From: Flavobacteriales bacterium
GTDB lineage: Bacteria > Bacteroidota > Bacteroidia > Flavobacteriales_D > Sanyastnellaceae
Length of the DNA stretch: 64,000 nt
Assembly: GCA_019694805.1 (NCBI GenBank)
Contig: JAIBBG010000010.1
Coordinates: forward strand, 1-64,000
Reading direction: 5' to 3'
Shown piece after piece: positions 36,462 to 53,831 of the stretch. The notes below the pieces were generated by a model, which worked only from the letters and a program-made list of their open reading frames with translations, ran no database searches and was not told the origin of the DNA. Both the position numbers and the translations under genes were made by a program. Numbering within the stretch: position 1 is the first letter of the stretch; each line of letters starts with the position of its first letter.

Positions 36462-37118
36462 ATGTCAACATTTGGAGTACTTGGAACCGGAGCGGTGGGA
36501 CAAATGATTGCCGGTAAATTGATCGATCTGGGTCATGAAGTCTTGATGGGTTCTCGAACCATGGACAATGAAAAGGCACTGAAATTTGCTGGTTCTTTTC
36601 CAGGTAAAAGTTTCAATGGACTTTTTGCGGATGCTTTTCAATTCAGCGATATCGTCTTCAATTGCACCCATGGTGTTGCCTCATTGGATGTGCTGCGTTC
36701 AGTTGGAAAGGAGAATCTCCGGGATAAGTTATTGATTGATTTGTCCAACCCACTTGACTTCAGCCATGGGATGCCTCCAACTCTCTCCATTTGCAACACT
36801 TCTTCGTTGGCTGAATCCATACAATCTGAATTTCCTGAACTTAAAGTGGTGAAGGCATTAAATACAACTTGGTGCGGTATCATGGTGAATCCGGGAATGA
36901 TTGGTGGAGGAGATCACAACACTTTTGTTTCAGGACATGATGAATCTGCCAAACAGCGAGTAAAGGAAATTTTGGTTTCTTTCGGATGGATGGAGAAAAA
37001 CATCCTTGACCTTGGAGATCTTACTGCAGCGCGAGGTATGGAAATGTATCTGCCACTCTGGTTGCGGATTTGGGGCGCGACGAAGAATGGGGCGTTTAAT
37101 GTCAAAATCGTTTCGTGA
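36462..37118 (+). CDS. NADP-dependent F420-reductase-like dinucleotide-binding protein
   Basis: The 218-residue cytoplasmic protein opens with a Rossmann motif GVLGTGAVGQMIAGKL and continues with SRTMDNEKA, IVFNCTHGVASLD, DLSNPLDFS, VKALNTTWCGIMVNP and a late FGWMEKNILDLGDLTAARGMEMYLPLW stretch (in parts), typical of the NADPH-dependent F420 reductase/NADP oxidoreductase family. Bacteria without F420 carry such homologues with unknown substrates. An AGAAGGA sequence precedes the ATG. A heptamer repeat array begins six bases after the stop. Confidence 0.85.
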   Translation: MSTFGVLGTGAVGQMIAGKLIDLGHEVLMGSRTMDNEKALKFAGSFPGKSFNGLFADAFQFSDIVFNCTHGVASLDVLRSVGKENLRDKLLIDLSNPLDFSHGMPPTLSICNTSSLAESIQSEFPELKVVKALNTTWCGIMVNPGMIGGGDHNTFVSGHDESAKQRVKEILVSFGWMEKNILDLGDLTAARGMEMYLPLWLRIWGATKNGAFNVKIVS

Positions 37119-37547
37119 AAGGCGAATGACGAATGGTGAATGGTGAATGGTGAATTGTGAATGGTGAATGGTGAATTGTGAATGGTGAATTGTGAATGGT
37201 GAATTGTTTTCAGTTTTGAGAAAGGAAGGAATATTTCACCTTGAAATGTGTTGATTAGAACATGCTGAGAAGCTCAGATATCTTGGAGAAGCGAGCGGCT
37301 TTCGTCATAAAGGAATTAGTATGCCTCAACCTTAAACCTTGAACTTTGAACTTTGAACCTTGAACCTTGAACCGAAAAAGTATCAGGTATCATGTATTAG
37401 GTATTAGGAGCGCCAAAATTCTTTTGCGAGGCGAGCATCATTTGTCAAACAACCACCTGACCACTGCCAATTTTAAATATTAAATTTTAAATCTTCAATT
37501 CCCCCCACAACCTTAAACCTTGAACTTTGAACCTAATTCCCGCCATC
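37119..37547. repeat. Intergenic patch of at least four heptanucleotide repeat families
   Basis: Between convergent stops lie: eleven contiguous 7-base units GAATGGT/GAATTGT (37131-37207, with a degenerate unit at 37124); six units CCTTGAA/CTTTGAA/CCTTAAA (37330-37371) and three more at 37511-37531; four units TATCAGG/TATTAGG (37381-37408); and five AT-rich units ending AAT such as TTTAAAT (37465-37499). All have period 7 but unrelated sequence. No ORF or hairpin terminator is evident. I recall similar words between genes in other Bacteroidota; function unknown. Confidence 0.9.
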
Positions 37548-39188
37548 TCACTTCACCACTTCTCCGCCCACAATCGTCATCACCACTTCTGTTGACAGTA
37601 TGTCTTTCTCTTCGATCTTGAGAATATCACGATCAAGCATCACAATATCGGCGAATTTTCCGACTTCCAAACTGCCTTTTTTATTTTCTTCAAAATTGGC
37701 AATGGCGGCCCAGATGGTCATTCCGCGCAATGCATCTTCTCTTGTCAAAGCATTTTCTTTTTGCCATCCCTCTTCAGGTTGTCCAACGAGGTCTTTGCGT
37801 GAAACAGCAGCATAAAATGTTTTCAAAGGTGAAATGTCTTCAATTGGGAAATCGGTTCCCAGTGCTGCCATGCCGAGTTGCTCTTTCAATTCGCGATAGG
37901 TGTAAGCACGTCGAACTCGATTGCGACCTAACCGCAATTCTGCCCACGGCATATCGCTTGTTGCATGTGTTGGTTGAATACTTGGAATCACATGAAGTTG
38001 TGCAAAGCGCGGTAAATCATTTTCATGAACAACCTGAGCATGTTCAATGCGCCAACGATGATCGGGTAGATCGCCGATCATTTCCTCATAGATATTCAGC
38101 ATGACTCTGTTGGCACTATCTCCAATGGCATGAGTGCATACCTGAAAGCCGTGCTCTCGCAATTGCCACATGTTTTTTCTGAAATGATTGATGCTATCGA
38201 GAAGCATCCCATATACAGGACCGGGCATCACATCAGAATAAGGAGCAAGCAAACAAGCGCCGCGTGATCCTAATGCACCATCCGCATAAAACTTAAATGC
38301 TCTCACACTCAAACGATCTGTGGTATCAATACCGTTTTTCAAATAGTATTCATAATTGGCAGGATCATCGGACAACATAGCGTAAATGCGCATTTTTAAT
38401 TGTCCATTTGACTGAAGCTCTTTGATGAGGTCGATGTCTTTCTTCATGATACCGGCATCATCTACAGTGGTGAGGCCAACATCAAAACAGTTTTTCTGTG
38501 CATCGAGCAAAGCACGGACATCGAATTCTTTATCTGGTGCAGGAAGAATTTTCTCAACCAAGTTCATGGCATTATCAATGAGCACTCCGGTTGGTACACC
38601 ATTTTGTGTGAGGATATTTCCACCATTCACCTGGGTTGAAGCTGTAATGCCTGCCATTTCAAGTGTCTTGCTATTCACCAGCATGGCATGTCCATCAATT
38701 CTCTTCAGCATCACTGGTCTATCCGGAAACAAACTATCGAGTATTTCTTTCGTTGGAAATTCCTGAATAGCCCAATCGTTTTGATCCCAACCTCTGCCGC
38801 GAATCCACAGGTCTGTGCTTTTTTGAGCATGTTCTTTCACCCGCATCATCACATCATCGAAAGAAGTCGTTCCAACCAAATTCACTTCCTGCAATGTTCT
38901 ACCATAACCCAGGAAATGGCAATGCGCATCAATGAAGCCAGGATAGATGAATTTTTTTCCGCAATCAATCACTTTGGGTGCATCATACTCATTCATGATT
39001 TCCCTTTCTTTTCCAATGGCAATGATTTTACCGTCTTTGATAGCCAATGCTTCAAATGTGCTGAAAGCATCGTCTACCGTGTAGATCACAGCATTGTGCA
39101 AAATGACATCGGCTTCTTTGTTTTTGAAGTGACATCCTGTAATCAGTGTAGCTACGAATGCCAGGATTATGCTGTAGTAAAATCTCAT
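37548..39188 (-). CDS. Amidohydrolase (YtcJ-type) lipoprotein
   Basis: The 546-residue metal-dependent hydrolase has a lipoprotein signal ending LITGC (Cys19). The amidohydrolase domain shows GFIDAHCHFLG near residue 82 (HxH metal ligands), later VCTHAIGD and WRIEHAQVV with metal-ligand histidines, and GTDFPIEDISPL near the C-terminus with the conserved Asp. The YtcJ group hydrolyses amide or imide bonds; substrate unknown. Its ATG overlaps the SDR stop by one base (TGATG), so the two form an operon. A lipid anchor on this enzyme places it in the envelope. Confidence 0.92.
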   Translation of the reverse strand: MRFYYSIILAFVATLITGCHFKNKEADVILHNAVIYTVDDAFSTFEALAIKDGKIIAIGKEREIMNEYDAPKVIDCGKKFIYPGFIDAHCHFLGYGRTLQEVNLVGTTSFDDVMMRVKEHAQKSTDLWIRGRGWDQNDWAIQEFPTKEILDSLFPDRPVMLKRIDGHAMLVNSKTLEMAGITASTQVNGGNILTQNGVPTGVLIDNAMNLVEKILPAPDKEFDVRALLDAQKNCFDVGLTTVDDAGIMKKDIDLIKELQSNGQLKMRIYAMLSDDPANYEYYLKNGIDTTDRLSVRAFKFYADGALGSRGACLLAPYSDVMPGPVYGMLLDSINHFRKNMWQLREHGFQVCTHAIGDSANRVMLNIYEEMIGDLPDHRWRIEHAQVVHENDLPRFAQLHVIPSIQPTHATSDMPWAELRLGRNRVRRAYTYRELKEQLGMAALGTDFPIEDISPLKTFYAAVSRKDLVGQPEEGWQKENALTREDALRGMTIWAAIANFEENKKGSLEVGKFADIVMLDRDILKIEEKDILSTEVVMTIVGGEVVK

Positions 39189-48239: not shown

Positions 48240-51200
48240 ATGAAACGAATTCTATTCTCGCTTGGTCTTGTCATGCTCTTTTTGCACTCGCAGGCATTGG
48301 TTAAGCTCACTTATGTCAATCCGACAACGAGTGAAATCAGCATTACAAACTTTGGTTCAACAACGGTGGATATTACCAATTACCGCTTTTGCGCTTTGTT
48401 CGAATATGCCAACCTATCACAACCGACTGTATCGATTGTGAGTGGTGATTTTAATCTTTCACCAAATGAAACGGTTACTGTCATGTGGAATTCCTCATCT
48501 GGTTTTAACACCACGGCGAGTGATCTCGGACTTTATCTCGGAACAGGTGCATTCAGTAGTCCTTCTGCTATGGTGGATTTTTTCCAGTATGGAGATTCTG
48601 GACAGGGACGTGAAAATGTGGCGGCATCAGCAGGACTGTGGACCGCAGGAACATTTTTGACAGGCAGCGGGCCATGGTATTACATCGGCAATGGAATAGC
48701 AAGTGGTGCAGCACAATGGTCCTCCACGCTCAATGTGGATGTGACCTTTTATGTCGACATGAATAACGAGACAGTGAGTCCCAACGGAGTGCATGTGGTT
48801 GGAGATTTTCAAGGCTGGGTGGAAAATGGTTCACCAATGACAGACGCTGATGCAGATGGTGTTTACGAATACACTGCTTCTGTAGAAACCAATACAACAT
48901 TGATTTATACCTTCCTCAATGGAGATACTTACGCTGGACAAGAAGCAGTTCCTTCTACTTGTGGACAAGACAACGGCTTTGGAGGTTACAACCGCACACT
49001 CGATGTTGCAGATGTAAACATTGCGGCAGATACTGTTTGTTTCAGTTCATGTTCTGCATGTGAAATCATCGTTGAACCCACTTTTGTTGATGTGACATTC
49101 TACGTTGACATGAACAACGAAACCGTGAACGCAAACGGAGTTCATGTTGTAGGAAATTTCCAAAACTGGGTAGCAGACGGTTCACCAATGACCGATGCTG
49201 ATGCAGATGGTGTTTACGAATACACTGCTTCTGTAGAAACCAATACAACATTGATCTACACCTTCCTCAATGGCGATACCTACGCTGGACAAGAAGCAGT
49301 TCCTTCCACTTGTGGACAAGACAACGGCTTTGGAGGTTACAACCGCACACTCGATGTTGCTGATGTAAACCTTGCAGCAGATACTGTATGTTTCAGTTCT
49401 TGTTCAGCATGTGAAATCATCGTTGAACCCACTTTTGTTGATGTGACATTCTATGTCGACATGAACAACGAAACAGTGAACGCAAATGGTGTTCACGTCG
49501 TTGGAAATTTCCAAAACTGGGTAGCAGACGGTTCGCCAATGACCGACGCTGATGCAGATGGTGTTTACGAATACACGGCATCAGTAGAAACCAATACAAC
49601 ATTGATCTACACCTTCCTCAATGGAGATACTTACGCTGGACAGGAATCAGTTCCTTCCACTTGTGGACAAGACAACGGATTTGGAGGTTACAACCGCACA
49701 CTCGATGTTGCTGATGTAAACATCGCAGCAGATACTGTTTGTTTCAGTTCATGTTCAACATGTGAAATTATTGTTGAACCCACTTTTGTAGATGTTACAT
49801 TCTATGTCGACATGAACAATGAAACCGTAAACGCAAACGGAGTTCACGTTGTAGGAAATTTCCAAAACTGGGTAGCAGATGGTTCACCAATGACCGACGT
49901 TGATGCAGATGGCGTTTACGAACACACCGCATCAGTAGAAACCAATACAACATTGATTTATACCTTCCTCAATGGAGATACATACGCTGGACAAGAAGCA
50001 GTTCCTTCCACTTGTGGACAAGACAACGGATTTGGAGGTTACAACCGCACACTCGATGTAGCTGATGTAAACATCGCTGCAGATACAGTTTGTTTCAGTT
50101 CATGTTCTGCATGTGAAATCATCGTTGAACCCACATTTGTAGATGTGACATTCTACGTTGACATGAACAATGAGACCGTAAACGCAAACGGAGTTCACGT
50201 TGTAGGAAATTTCCAAAACTGGATAGCAGACGGTTCACCAATGACCGACGTTGATGCAGATGGCGTTTACGAATACACTGCTTCAGTAGAAACCAATACA
50301 ACATTGATTTATACCTTCCTCAATGGCGATACTTATGCTGGTCAGGAAGCAGTTCCTTCCGCTTGCGGTCAAGACAACGGCTTTGGAGGTTATAACCGCA
50401 CACTCGATGTTGCTGATGTAAACATCGCAGCAGATACTGTTTGTTTCAGTTCTTGTTCAGCATGTGAAATCATCGTTGAACCCACTTTTGTAGATGTGAC
50501 ATTCTACGTTGACATGAACAACGAAACGGTAAACGCAAACGGAGTTCACGTTGTAGGAAATTTCCAAAACTGGGTAGCAGATGGTTCACCAATGACCGAC
50601 GTTGATGCAGATGGCGTTTACGAATACACCGCATCAGTAGAAACCAATACAACATTGATCTACACCTTCCTCAATGGCGATACCTACGCTGGACAAGAAG
50701 CAGTTCCTTCCACTTGTGGACAAGACAACGGATTTGGAGGTTACAACCGCACACTCGATGTAGCTGATGTAAACATCGCTGCAGATACGGTGTGTTTCAG
50801 TTCTTGCACGGCATGTGATATCATTGTTGAACCCACTTTTGTTGATGTGACATTCTATGTTGACATGAACAACGAAACCGTAAACGCAAACGGTGTTCAC
50901 GTTGTAGGAAATTTCCAAAACTGGATAGCAGACGGTTCACCAATGACCGACGTTGATGCAGATGGTGTTTACGAATACACTGCTTCTGTAGAAACCAATA
51001 CAACATTGATCTACACCTTCCTCAATGGCGATACTTATGCTGGTCAGGAAGCAGTTCCTTCCGCTTGTGGACAAGACAACGGCTTTGGAGGTTACAACCG
51101 CACACTCGATGTAGCTGATGTAAACATCGCTGCAGATACGGTGTGTTTCAGTTCTTGCACGGCATGTGATATCATTGTTGAACCCACTTTTGTTGATGTG

Positions 51201-53831
51201 ACATTCTATGTTGACATGAATAATGAAACAGTAAGTGCCAACGGCGTTCACATCGCAGGCAGTTTCCAAAACTGGAATCCTGCAACCAGCGAAATGACCG
51301 ATGTTGATCAGGATGGTATTTATGAGTATACCGCATCCATCGACACCACGCTCACCATTCAATATGTATTCATCAATGGCAATGCATGGACAGGACAAGA
51401 AGTTGTACCATCAGCTTGTGGTGTGAGCAATGGTTTTGGTGGTTATAACAGATCGCTGGAAATCGCAGAAGAAGACATGATCCTCGATGTGGTATGTTTC
51501 GCTACATGCGAAGCATGCATCATTGTTGATCCGGGTATGTACGACATCACATTCAGGGTGAATATGGTGAACGAAGTAGTGGATGCAGCCGGTGTGACCA
51601 TGCTCGCCGTTTCCTCTTTGACACCTGCCAATCAGGTTGCATTGACCGATGATAATGCTGACGGTGTTTATGAAGTTACCCTCAGCTATCTCACCGGCGA
51701 TACCATCTGGTATCAATTCGTGAATGGCGACAACTTCCTCGGAGAAGAAGATGTGCCTTCGGCTTGCGGTGAATCATATGGCATCTATGGCATATCCAGA
51801 AAAACCATCGTTGGCGAAGCTGACGTTGTGCTGCCAGTGGTTTGTTTCAATGAATGCGCCAACTGCGTGACATCAGCCACCAACCAGATCACCTTCCTGG
51901 TGAATATGAACGAACAAACAGTTTCTCCGGATGGCGTTCACCTCGTGGGCAATTTCCAAGGATGGGATCCAGCAGCGACTCCGATGAATGATGATGACGG
52001 AGACGGTGTATACAGCGTAACCATTGAAACCGATGAATGGGCGAATCTCAGCTTTAAATTCATCAATGGAAATACCTTCGACGGAGTTGAAAACGTACCT
52101 TCAACATGTGGATTGCCTGATGGCAACGGAGGTTATAATCGTCTACTGGAAACAGGTGGTGTCGATATCACGTTTGGTCCTGTGTGTTTCGGATCATGCA
52201 CCGATTGCATCATCAATCCAGCCACAGTCAGCGTAACCTTCCTTGTGAATATGGCAGACCAGATTGTGGATGCCAATGGAGTTCATTATGCAGGAGCCTT
52301 GCAAGGTTGGGATCCTTCATCTTCTGAAATGACTGACGACGATGGAGATGGTATTTATGAAATCACCCTTGAGGCCCAAGTCAATACTGCACAACAATTC
52401 CGATTCATCAATGGTAATGATTGGCCATTTGGAGAATCTGTTCCCGCTGCTTGCGGCGTAGACGATGGCTTTGGCGGATTGAACCGCAGTGTGTTTGTAG
52501 GTGTTGAAGACATGACCTTCGGTCCGGTATGTTTCGGTGCTTGTGTTGATTGCGAAGACGTCGTGATTCCAACCACAGTAAACGTGACCTTCCAGGTGAA
52601 CATGGCTAATGAAACAGTAAGTGCTGATGGCGTTCACATTGCGGGAAGCTTCCAGGGATGGAATCCTGCAACGACCGCTATGACTGACGACAACAGCGAT
52701 GGCATTTACGAATACACCACTGCGATCGATACCAATAGTCAGGTATTGTTTGTATACATCAACGGCAATGCTTGGACAGGTCAGGAACCTGTGCCATCAG
52801 CATGCGGCCAAGACAACGGCTTCGGTGGTTACAATCGATTGTTGAATGTAGCTGAGGCCGATACCACATATGGTCCGGTTTGTTTCAGTGAATGTGAAGA
52901 CTGCGCACCATTTGCACCGGTATTGGTGACATTCCGTGTGGACATGAGCAATCAAGTTGTGAATGCTGAAGGTGTATTTATGGCTGGCAGTTTCAATAAC
53001 TGGGATCCAACAGCAACACAATTGAGTGAGTATGAACCTAACCATTATCAGGCGGTGGTAGTGCTCAATGCTGGTGAACACGTCAACTATAAATTCCTCA
53101 ATGGCAGCGATTGGACGGGAGCAGAATCAGTGCCAGTAGACTGCGGTGAAGATGATGGATCAGGCAACATCAACCGTTCTTATGATGCTGGAACATCCAA
53201 TGAAACTGTAGACATCGTTTGTTTCAACGAATGCAGCACATGCACTGTAGTGAATATGTTGGACATCACCTTCCAGGTAGATATGGGTCAGAATACCATC
53301 AGTGTCGATGGCATTCATTTAGCGGGATCGTTTAATGCTTTCTCACCGACAGCGACACCGATGACCAATACAGTAGATAACGTATATACCGCTACTGTTT
53401 CTGTTCCTGAGAATACACAGCTCACTTACAAATTCATCAATGGATCAGACTTTACTGGTGTAGAATCGGTTCCATTTGCATGCGGAGTAGATGATGGCTT
53501 TGGTGGATACAACAGATCATTCACCACCAATCAAAGTGATGTAACGCTTCCTGAAGTTTGTTTTAGTTCATGTGAAGATTGTCCGGTTGGTGTTGGAGAA
53601 ATGGAAGTCAACATGTTTACCGTGTATCCAATACCTGCAGAAGGTCAATTTGTGATCAGAATGAATCAAAGTAGCCGTGCAGATTTCAGGATCTTTGACA
53701 GCACCGGAAAATTGATGATGAGCGATCGACTTGAAGGAACCATCACTGAAGTGAATGTTGGAGGATGGACGTCTGGTCTCTACCATGTCGAGATTGATGG
53801 TGTTGGCAAACAGCGCATCATGGTGAAGTAA
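48240..53831 (+). CDS. Giant T9SS-secreted protein with lamin-tail domain and fourteen Cys-containing modules
   Basis: The 1863-residue secreted protein has a signal peptide (MKRILFSLGLVMLFLHSQA) and a lamin-tail-like beta domain at ~20-150. Then come fourteen ~117-residue modules (residues ~166-1780) of the form VDMNNETVNANGVHVVGNFQNW...DADGVYEYT...FLNGDTYAGQE...CG...NR...VCFxxCxxC. Their first half resembles a starch-binding/CBM-like beta sandwich, the second half holds four cysteines. Modules 1-7 (48735-51191) are nearly identical and repeat every 351 bases; 8-14 are diverged. A T9SS type A sorting domain closes it (VYPIPAEGQF, GLYHVEI). Probably a cell-surface carbohydrate-binding or matrix protein; inference. 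Confidence 0.93.
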   Translation: MKRILFSLGLVMLFLHSQALVKLTYVNPTTSEISITNFGSTTVDITNYRFCALFEYANLSQPTVSIVSGDFNLSPNETVTVMWNSSSGFNTTASDLGLYLGTGAFSSPSAMVDFFQYGDSGQGRENVAASAGLWTAGTFLTGSGPWYYIGNGIASGAAQWSSTLNVDVTFYVDMNNETVSPNGVHVVGDFQGWVENGSPMTDADADGVYEYTASVETNTTLIYTFLNGDTYAGQEAVPSTCGQDNGFGGYNRTLDVADVNIAADTVCFSSCSACEIIVEPTFVDVTFYVDMNNETVNANGVHVVGNFQNWVADGSPMTDADADGVYEYTASVETNTTLIYTFLNGDTYAGQEAVPSTCGQDNGFGGYNRTLDVADVNLAADTVCFSSCSACEIIVEPTFVDVTFYVDMNNETVNANGVHVVGNFQNWVADGSPMTDADADGVYEYTASVETNTTLIYTFLNGDTYAGQESVPSTCGQDNGFGGYNRTLDVADVNIAADTVCFSSCSTCEIIVEPTFVDVTFYVDMNNETVNANGVHVVGNFQNWVADGSPMTDVDADGVYEHTASVETNTTLIYTFLNGDTYAGQEAVPSTCGQDNGFGGYNRTLDVADVNIAADTVCFSSCSACEIIVEPTFVDVTFYVDMNNETVNANGVHVVGNFQNWIADGSPMTDVDADGVYEYTASVETNTTLIYTFLNGDTYAGQEAVPSACGQDNGFGGYNRTLDVADVNIAADTVCFSSCSACEIIVEPTFVDVTFYVDMNNETVNANGVHVVGNFQNWVADGSPMTDVDADGVYEYTASVETNTTLIYTFLNGDTYAGQEAVPSTCGQDNGFGGYNRTLDVADVNIAADTVCFSSCTACDIIVEPTFVDVTFYVDMNNETVNANGVHVVGNFQNWIADGSPMTDVDADGVYEYTASVETNTTLIYTFLNGDTYAGQEAVPSACGQDNGFGGYNRTLDVADVNIAADTVCFSSCTACDIIVEPTFVDVTFYVDMNNETVSANGVHIAGSFQNWNPATSEMTDVDQDGIYEYTASIDTTLTIQYVFINGNAWTGQEVVPSACGVSNGFGGYNRSLEIAEEDMILDVVCFATCEACIIVDPGMYDITFRVNMVNEVVDAAGVTMLAVSSLTPANQVALTDDNADGVYEVTLSYLTGDTIWYQFVNGDNFLGEEDVPSACGESYGIYGISRKTIVGEADVVLPVVCFNECANCVTSATNQITFLVNMNEQTVSPDGVHLVGNFQGWDPAATPMNDDDGDGVYSVTIETDEWANLSFKFINGNTFDGVENVPSTCGLPDGNGGYNRLLETGGVDITFGPVCFGSCTDCIINPATVSVTFLVNMADQIVDANGVHYAGALQGWDPSSSEMTDDDGDGIYEITLEAQVNTAQQFRFINGNDWPFGESVPAACGVDDGFGGLNRSVFVGVEDMTFGPVCFGACVDCEDVVIPTTVNVTFQVNMANETVSADGVHIAGSFQGWNPATTAMTDDNSDGIYEYTTAIDTNSQVLFVYINGNAWTGQEPVPSACGQDNGFGGYNRLLNVAEADTTYGPVCFSECEDCAPFAPVLVTFRVDMSNQVVNAEGVFMAGSFNNWDPTATQLSEYEPNHYQAVVVLNAGEHVNYKFLNGSDWTGAESVPVDCGEDDGSGNINRSYDAGTSNETVDIVCFNECSTCTVVNMLDITFQVDMGQNTISVDGIHLAGSFNAFSPTATPMTNTVDNVYTATVSVPENTQLTYKFINGSDFTGVESVPFACGVDDGFGGYNRSFTTNQSDVTLPEVCFSSCEDCPVGVGEMEVNMFTVYPIPAEGQFVIRMNQSSRADFRIFDSTGKLMMSDRLEGTITEVNVGGWTSGLYHVEIDGVGKQRIMVK
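48735..51191 (+). repeat. Seven tandem 351-bp repeats inside the giant surface-protein gene
   Basis: Units begin at 48735, 49086, 49437, 49788, 50139, 50490 and 50841, each exactly 351 bases with few substitutions, mostly synonymous (e.g. Ala/Thr and Val/Ile switches such as NWV/NWI, PSTCG/PSACG). An eighth, diverged unit begins at 51192. The exact length keeps the frame after unequal recombination. Confidence 0.95.

What the first reader, a model, noticed from the sequence alone, without database searches (positions are those of the whole stretch)
37124..37531. Four unrelated repeat families sharing a 7-base period in one intergenic region
Within about 400 bases stand (GAATGGT/GAATTGT)11, (CCTTGAA/CTTTGAA)6 plus 3, (TATTAGG/TATCAGG)4 and (TTTAAAT/ATTAAAT)-type 5 units; CTGACCA-CTGCCAA near 37457-37470 may be a fifth. 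Different words, same period, same site. A period-7 process (replication slippage, a template-driven enzyme, or a protein reading 7-base steps) would explain it; coincidence of four microsatellites is unlikely.
Basis: seen in the sequence. Interest (0 to 1): 0.65.

Follow-up and report, generated by a model that had tools for sequence, protein, structure and literature searches.

The report
Seven-base repeats that end S23 cassettes
A gap between two genes holds several short DNA words, each repeated every seven bases; the same kind of seven-base arrays recurs across this genome and many other bacteria, where it very often brackets a small gene (S23, the '23S rRNA-intervening sequence protein') as inverted ends, which points to a seven-base-step mobile cassette whose worn-down ends are probably what we see here.

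Summary
Four arrays with a 7-base period lie at 37115-37532 between convergent genes; the suggested fifth is not an array. In 464 kb sampled from this genome, period 7 gives 11 arrays and the other periods from 2 to 24 give 0-2 each. The words recur together at about 25 sites in the genome, and in about 11% of 396 Bacteroidota genomes. The families are not all unrelated. TATTAGG and TTTAAAT are the two arms of one interspersed element with a ~60-nt core. In other copies of that element CCTTGAA stands exactly where the window has TTTTAAA.

Following the arrays outward gave the main result. Heptad arrays hug S23 (PF05635, 'four helix bundle protein') genes in Bacteroidota genomes, in plasmids of other phyla and in phage contigs. 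They lie within 100 bp of the ORF, usually as inverted pairs, with words that differ by copy. Empty sites lack them, so they arrive with the cassette. I found no report of this in the open library.

The window has no S23 gene and no inverted pair. Best reading: ORF-less (solo or non-autonomous) heptad ends of this cassette type, expanded by slippage. That last step is inferred (about 0.5).

The parts
36462..37118 (+). upstream gene (NADP oxidoreductase-like, my reading of the sequence), convergent; its stop codon borders the first array
   Evidence: sequence
37115..37204 (.). heptad array 1, GTGAATG with GTGAATT units, 12.9 copies
   Evidence: (TRF)
37328..37373 (.). heptad array 2, AACCTTG/AACTTTG, 6.6 copies
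37380..37408 (.). heptad array 3, GTATTAG/GTATCAG, 4 units; left arm of the interspersed element
37409..37471 (.). ~60-nt core of the interspersed element (GAGCGCCAAAA...GAGGCGAGCATC...CTGCCAA); matching copies on C103, C98, C31, C38, C19, C37, C1, C43
37469..37500 (.). heptad array 4, TTTTAAA/TATTAAA, 4.6 units; right arm of the element, the position where other copies carry CCTTGAA/CTTTGAA
37509..37532 (.). short second AACCTTG array next to the end of the downstream gene
37548..39188 (-). downstream convergent gene (amidohydrolase-like, my reading of the sequence)

Best explanation
The four arrays belong to one genome-wide class of period-7 ('heptad') arrays whose word is free to change while the period is fixed. 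In many bacteria such arrays are the ends, usually inverted, of a small mobile cassette that carries an S23 (PF05635) gene. In this window they stand without an S23 gene: one array follows the stop codon of the upstream gene, and others are the arms of a ~60-nt interspersed element present about a dozen times in the genome. Proposed working: the cassette enters intergenic DNA, or genes, by replacing a stretch of target and brings its heptad ends. S23, or a partner, recognises the 7-base step or the paired ends rather than a fixed word. The arrays then grow, shrink and homogenise by slippage or conversion, which keeps the period and lets the word change. Solo or non-autonomous ends accumulate where they do least harm, in convergent and other non-promoter gaps. 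Shown: the period-7 excess, recurrence, word change at homologous arrays, the S23-heptad association in three data sets, and empty sites without heptads. Inferred: that the window arrays derive from such cassettes, that S23 reads the heptads, and slippage as the growth mode.
For: Period-7 excess. Words recur and co-occur in the genome; in the phylum: 23 and 26 of 396 genomes. Homologous arrays with different words in aligned copies of one element. S23 association: in 57 Bacteroidota loci, arrays fall 10 upstream and 14 downstream in the first 100 bp and 0-3 per 100 bp beyond. Plasmid loci: 15 and 18 in the first 100 bp, 0-3 beyond; 19 of 21 loci have an array next to the ORF. Viral contigs: 10 of 13 near. 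Two-sided cases are inverted in 6/6, 12 of 17 and 5/5. Control Y1_Tnp genes: 0 of 22 within 200 bp. Against isolated ORFs of the same genomes p = 0.0004 near, 0.0006 both sides. Empty sites without heptads; cassette ends coincide with heptads. In this genome, the words GTGAATG and TTTAAAT lie next to S23 genes (C57 and C37). Coxiella 23S IVS has GACAGAT heptads before its S23 ORF, with strain-variable copy number (PMC4990558). Convergent gaps with arrays 21/154, divergent 4/126 (summed).
Against: The window has no S23 gene (an S23-like fragment seen by eye is unsupported), no inverted arms and no unusual RNA fold. Only 19 of 57 Bacteroidota S23 genes have a nearby array, and most arrays in heptad-rich genomes are not near S23. 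S23-rich genomes can have few arrays in 40-kb samples. One genome (G350) has the words but no S23 match. Inverted arms pair no better than arms with shuffled unit order, which speaks against selection on exact pairing. No target-site duplication was seen.
Confidence: 0.5

Rival explanations
1. Ordinary heptanucleotide simple-sequence repeats made by polymerase slippage, which favours 7 because of the stretch held by the polymerase; S23 cassettes merely sit in, or stimulate, such repeats.
For: Heptanucleotides are the commonest 5-11-nt repeats in many bacteria, with this explanation proposed by Mrazek et al. 2007 as cited in PMC4679880 and PMC4692102. Imperfect neighbouring units fit slippage plus mutation.
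Against: Does not explain arrays concentrated within 100 bp of S23 ORFs, usually inverted, in several phyla, nor cassette ends coinciding with arrays while empty sites have none. Homologous arrays change every unit together.
Confidence: 0.3
2. The arrays are kept as RNA features (terminators, RNase III stems, or regulator binding sites) near gene ends.
For: Inverted pairs in G293 and around S23 fold into long stems; 28 of 110 arrays have an inverted partner within 600 bp, permutation mean 10; preference for convergent gaps.
Against: The window has no inverted pair and folds no better than shuffles (z = 0.76 and 1.55); exact pairing between arms is not selected.
Confidence: 0.1
3. The window cluster is just one more copy of a genome-specific interspersed element (heptad-core-heptad, MITE-like) unrelated to S23.
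For: About a dozen core copies, some in ~120-bp tandem units on C98 and C103.
Against: Leaves period 7 and the first array (GTGAATG, outside the element) unexplained; the same words flank S23 genes in this genome.
Confidence: 0.1

Closest known systems
Heptanucleotide long simple-sequence repeats (Mrazek et al. 2007, as cited in PMC4679880); GGGAATC/GGGGATT repeats of Xanthomonas and Nostoc (PMC4692102)
   Same: 7-base period, intergenic, many copies; in Xanthomonas about 70 inverted pairs were reported
   Different: Those reports follow a few fixed words; here the period is constant and the word changes within and between arrays. No S23 link is mentioned in the text of PMC4692102.
TAACTGA direct repeats (MacGregor 2015, PMC4679880)
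   Same: Heptamer arrays shared by Bacteroidetes and Cyanobacteria; other heptamers noted in the same intergenic regions
   Different: Interpreted as translational control upstream of start codons; here the gap is convergent, with no start codon nearby.
S23-encoding intervening sequences of 23S rRNA (Coxiella, Leptospira; PMC4990558)
   Same: An S23 ORF enclosed by complementary ends; GACAGAT heptads before the ORF in Coxiella, copy number varying by strain
   Different: Those sit in rRNA and are cut by RNase III; the cassettes here sit between or inside protein genes, and the window copy has no ORF.
Constant-size, variable-sequence tandem repeats (Subirana and Messeguer, PMC8161180)
   Same: Period kept, sequence free
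   Different: Periods 20-21 and 52 nt rather than 7.

Membership tests
Heptanucleotide simple-sequence repeat | 7-nt tandem unit in excess over other periods in the genome | tested here: met
Heptanucleotide simple-sequence repeat | recurs at many intergenic sites | tested here: met
S23 cassette with heptad ends (proposed here) | S23 (PF05635) ORF between the arrays | tested here: not met
   no Pfam hit on the one open fragment tested in the window
S23 cassette with heptad ends (proposed here) | inverted heptad arms | tested here: not met
   no inverted repeats at 37100-37560
S23 cassette with heptad ends (proposed here) | same words as arrays next to S23 genes of the same genome | tested here: met
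   GTGAATG at C57 and TTTAAAT at C37
S23 cassette with heptad ends (proposed here) | array absent at the empty site in a close relative | tested here: inconclusive
   no close relative of this genome was found; shown only for Nostoc cassettes
23S rRNA intervening sequence | insertion in the 23S rRNA gene | tested here: not met
   lies between protein genes; no Rfam match
MITE/REP-type palindromic element | terminal inverted repeats or palindrome | tested here: not met
TAACTGA repeat | the word TAACTGA upstream of start codons | tested here: not met
   words differ and the gap is convergent

The most novel reading that the evidence does not exclude
S23 (four-helix-bundle) proteins are the trans-acting partners of bacterial heptad arrays: they recognise a 7-base step rather than a sequence, move cassettes bracketed by such arrays between genomes, plasmids and phages (also into 23S rRNA as IVS), and leave behind the otherwise unexplained heptanucleotide repeats of Bacteroidota, Cyanobacteria and Xanthomonas, including those in this window.
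Probability: 0.35. Interest if true: 0.88.

Novelty: new variant of a known kind. Interest (0 to 1): 0.68.

Why it matters
Heptanucleotide repeats have been known in bacteria for decades without an agreed cause, and S23 genes, best known from fragmented 23S rRNA, have no agreed function. Finding one tightly at the ends of the other, in chromosomes, plasmids and phages of several phyla, with empty sites that lack both, makes both questions testable together and suggests a minimal mobile cassette that often sits among defence genes.

Tried and rejected
S23 relic in the window (ATG at 37264, MLRSSDILEKRAAFVIKEL...): looked S23-like by eye, no Pfam hit; dropped.
Stop-codon function of the words: 90 of 110 arrays have a stop on some strand against 76 for shuffled words; too weak.
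Mirrored unit order in inverted arms: not better than shuffled units; dropped.
RNA structure or known RNA family in the window: none.
RAYT/Y1 transposase as partner: no arrays within 200 bp of 22 Y1_Tnp genes.
Transition-biased (deamination-like) word change: 237 transitions, 307 transversions; no bias.
Genome-level correlation of S23 and words: 41 of 45 word-positive against 258 of 351 other genomes (Fisher p = 0.005), uncorrected for phylogeny; not relied on. One of the four exceptions (G104) has a cut-off S23-like fragment at a contig end.

Full report
WHAT IS IN THE WINDOW. The gap between two convergent ORFs (36462-37118 + and 37548-39188 -) holds arrays with a 7-base period: GTGAATG 37115-37204, AACCTTG 37328-37373 and 37509-37532, GTATTAG 37380-37408, TTTTAAA 37469-37500. 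A lag scan of the window and of 400 kb of contig C88 gave 3 and 8 arrays at period 7, 0-2 at every other period from 2 to 24, and none in a second-order Markov control. The 'CTGACCA-CTGCCAA' family is not an array.

RECURRENCE. The words recur in this 3.85-Mb draft genome: 27, 30 and 7 pattern matches with zero reversed controls, at overlapping sites, several of them near contig ends. In the phylum sample, GTGAATNG x3 occurs in 23 and GAACYTT x3 in 26 of 396 genomes. In 200-kb samples of four of these genomes, period 7 gives 34, 30, 22 and 16 arrays and no other period exceeds 6. Words drift step by step inside arrays while the period stays 7.

THE FAMILIES ARE PARTLY ONE THING. A DNA search with the middle of the gap found about a dozen copies of one element. 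Aligned, they share a ~60-nt core (GAGGCGAGCATC...CAACC...TGCCAA). Directly after TGCCAA stands a heptad array in the same register in all copies, but its word is TTTTAAA/TATTAAA in some (including the window) and CCTTGAA/CTTTGAA in others. So two of the 'unrelated' words are alternative states of one homologous array, and all units changed together. GTATTAG is the other arm of the element. On contigs C98 and C103 the element forms ~120-bp tandem units.

LINK TO S23. At C57 of this genome two inverted GTGAATG arrays bracket an S23 (PF05635) ORF. I tested this with internal controls. (a) 57 S23 loci of Bacteroidota: arrays per 100 bp from the ORF are 10, 1, 2, 1, 0... upstream and 14, 0, 0, 1... 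downstream; six loci have arrays on both sides, all inverted; 22 Y1_Tnp control loci have none within 200 bp. Against isolated ORFs of the same genomes, 15/28 near (expected 6.8, p = 0.0004) and 6/28 on both sides (expected 1.1, p = 0.0006). (b) 21 S23 loci on plasmids of Cyanobacteria, Chloroflexota, Spirochaetota, Bacteroidota and Bacillota: 15, 3, 2, 0... and 18, 2, 0, 1...; 19 of 21 have an array next to the ORF; of 17 two-sided loci 12 are inverted, 4 direct, 1 tie. (c) 13 S23 loci in viral contigs: 10 near, 5 on both sides, all inverted. Words differ from locus to locus: TAATTCG, GTCGGAG, AAATTCA, CAGTTAC, GAGTAAT. PMC4990558 reports GACAGAT heptads, strain-variable in number, before the S23 ORF of the Coxiella 23S intervening sequence.

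EMPTY SITES. In three Nostoc plasmids an S23 cassette lies inside a DNA cytosine methyltransferase gene that is intact in others. Homology to the intact copy stops 5 nt before the left heptad array and resumes just after the right one; 328 nt of the gene are missing. A second cassette replaces 188 nt of another gene that three other plasmids keep. A third lies between cas2 and cas1, which are adjacent and without heptads in another strain. So the arrays arrive with the cassette. No target-site duplication is evident.

WHAT THE WINDOW COPY IS. It has no S23 hit, no inverted arms, no unusual fold and no Rfam family. Its words GTGAATG and TTTAAAT are words found next to S23 genes of the same genome (C57 and C37). 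The best reading is solo or non-autonomous heptad ends, plus one copy of a heptad-core-heptad element. That is an inference; no close relative was found to show an empty site.

LIMITS. Most arrays are not next to S23, and most Bacteroidota S23 genes in the sample are not next to an array. The genome-level correlation is weak and uncorrected for phylogeny. Arms of inverted pairs do not pair better than shuffled ones. The literature search covered open papers only; I found no report of the S23-heptad link there. Gene names and S23 background not cited to a call rest on my own knowledge.

Noticed in passing
48734-51275: A 351-bp tandem repeat, 7.2 copies at 92% match, far longer than the heptad arrays; possibly a repeated domain in a coding region.
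   Followed up: no
L036 (G000:C83:7684-10701): About four tandem ~200-400-bp units, each with a CCTTGAAC heptad array, a terminator-like GC-rich hairpin with a T run, and a unique stretch.
   Followed up: no
L337, L342, L345, L349, L350, L351: S23 cassettes repeatedly sit inside defence operons: next to DNA methylases, helicases, DISARM drmD/BREX pglX, type I R-M; also between cas2 and cas1 (L333, L335) and beside XisI/XisH (L340, L347).
   Followed up: partly
L343:1425-1890, L346, L360: An S23 cassette interrupts a DNA cytosine methyltransferase gene on Nostoc plasmids, with 328 nt of the gene lost.
   Followed up: yes
L344 (Nostoc sp. UHCC 0870 plasmid): An S23 gene flanked by a near-perfect inverted repeat that is not heptad-based, a possible different kind of cassette end.
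   Followed up: no
L117:14883-15162 (G293): Heptad arrays enclosing long nested palindromes (GTGCGAGACC...GGTCTCGCAC and GTCGCC...GGCGAC).
   Followed up: no
G000 contigs C19, C37, C57, C88, C43, C1: Heptad arrays and S23 genes often lie near contig ends of the draft, so both are probably undercounted.
   Followed up: partly
L030 (G000:C22), between what read as atpA and atpG: A heptad hairpin (TTCAAGG arms, ~13-nt loop) between what look like two ATP synthase genes.
   Followed up: no
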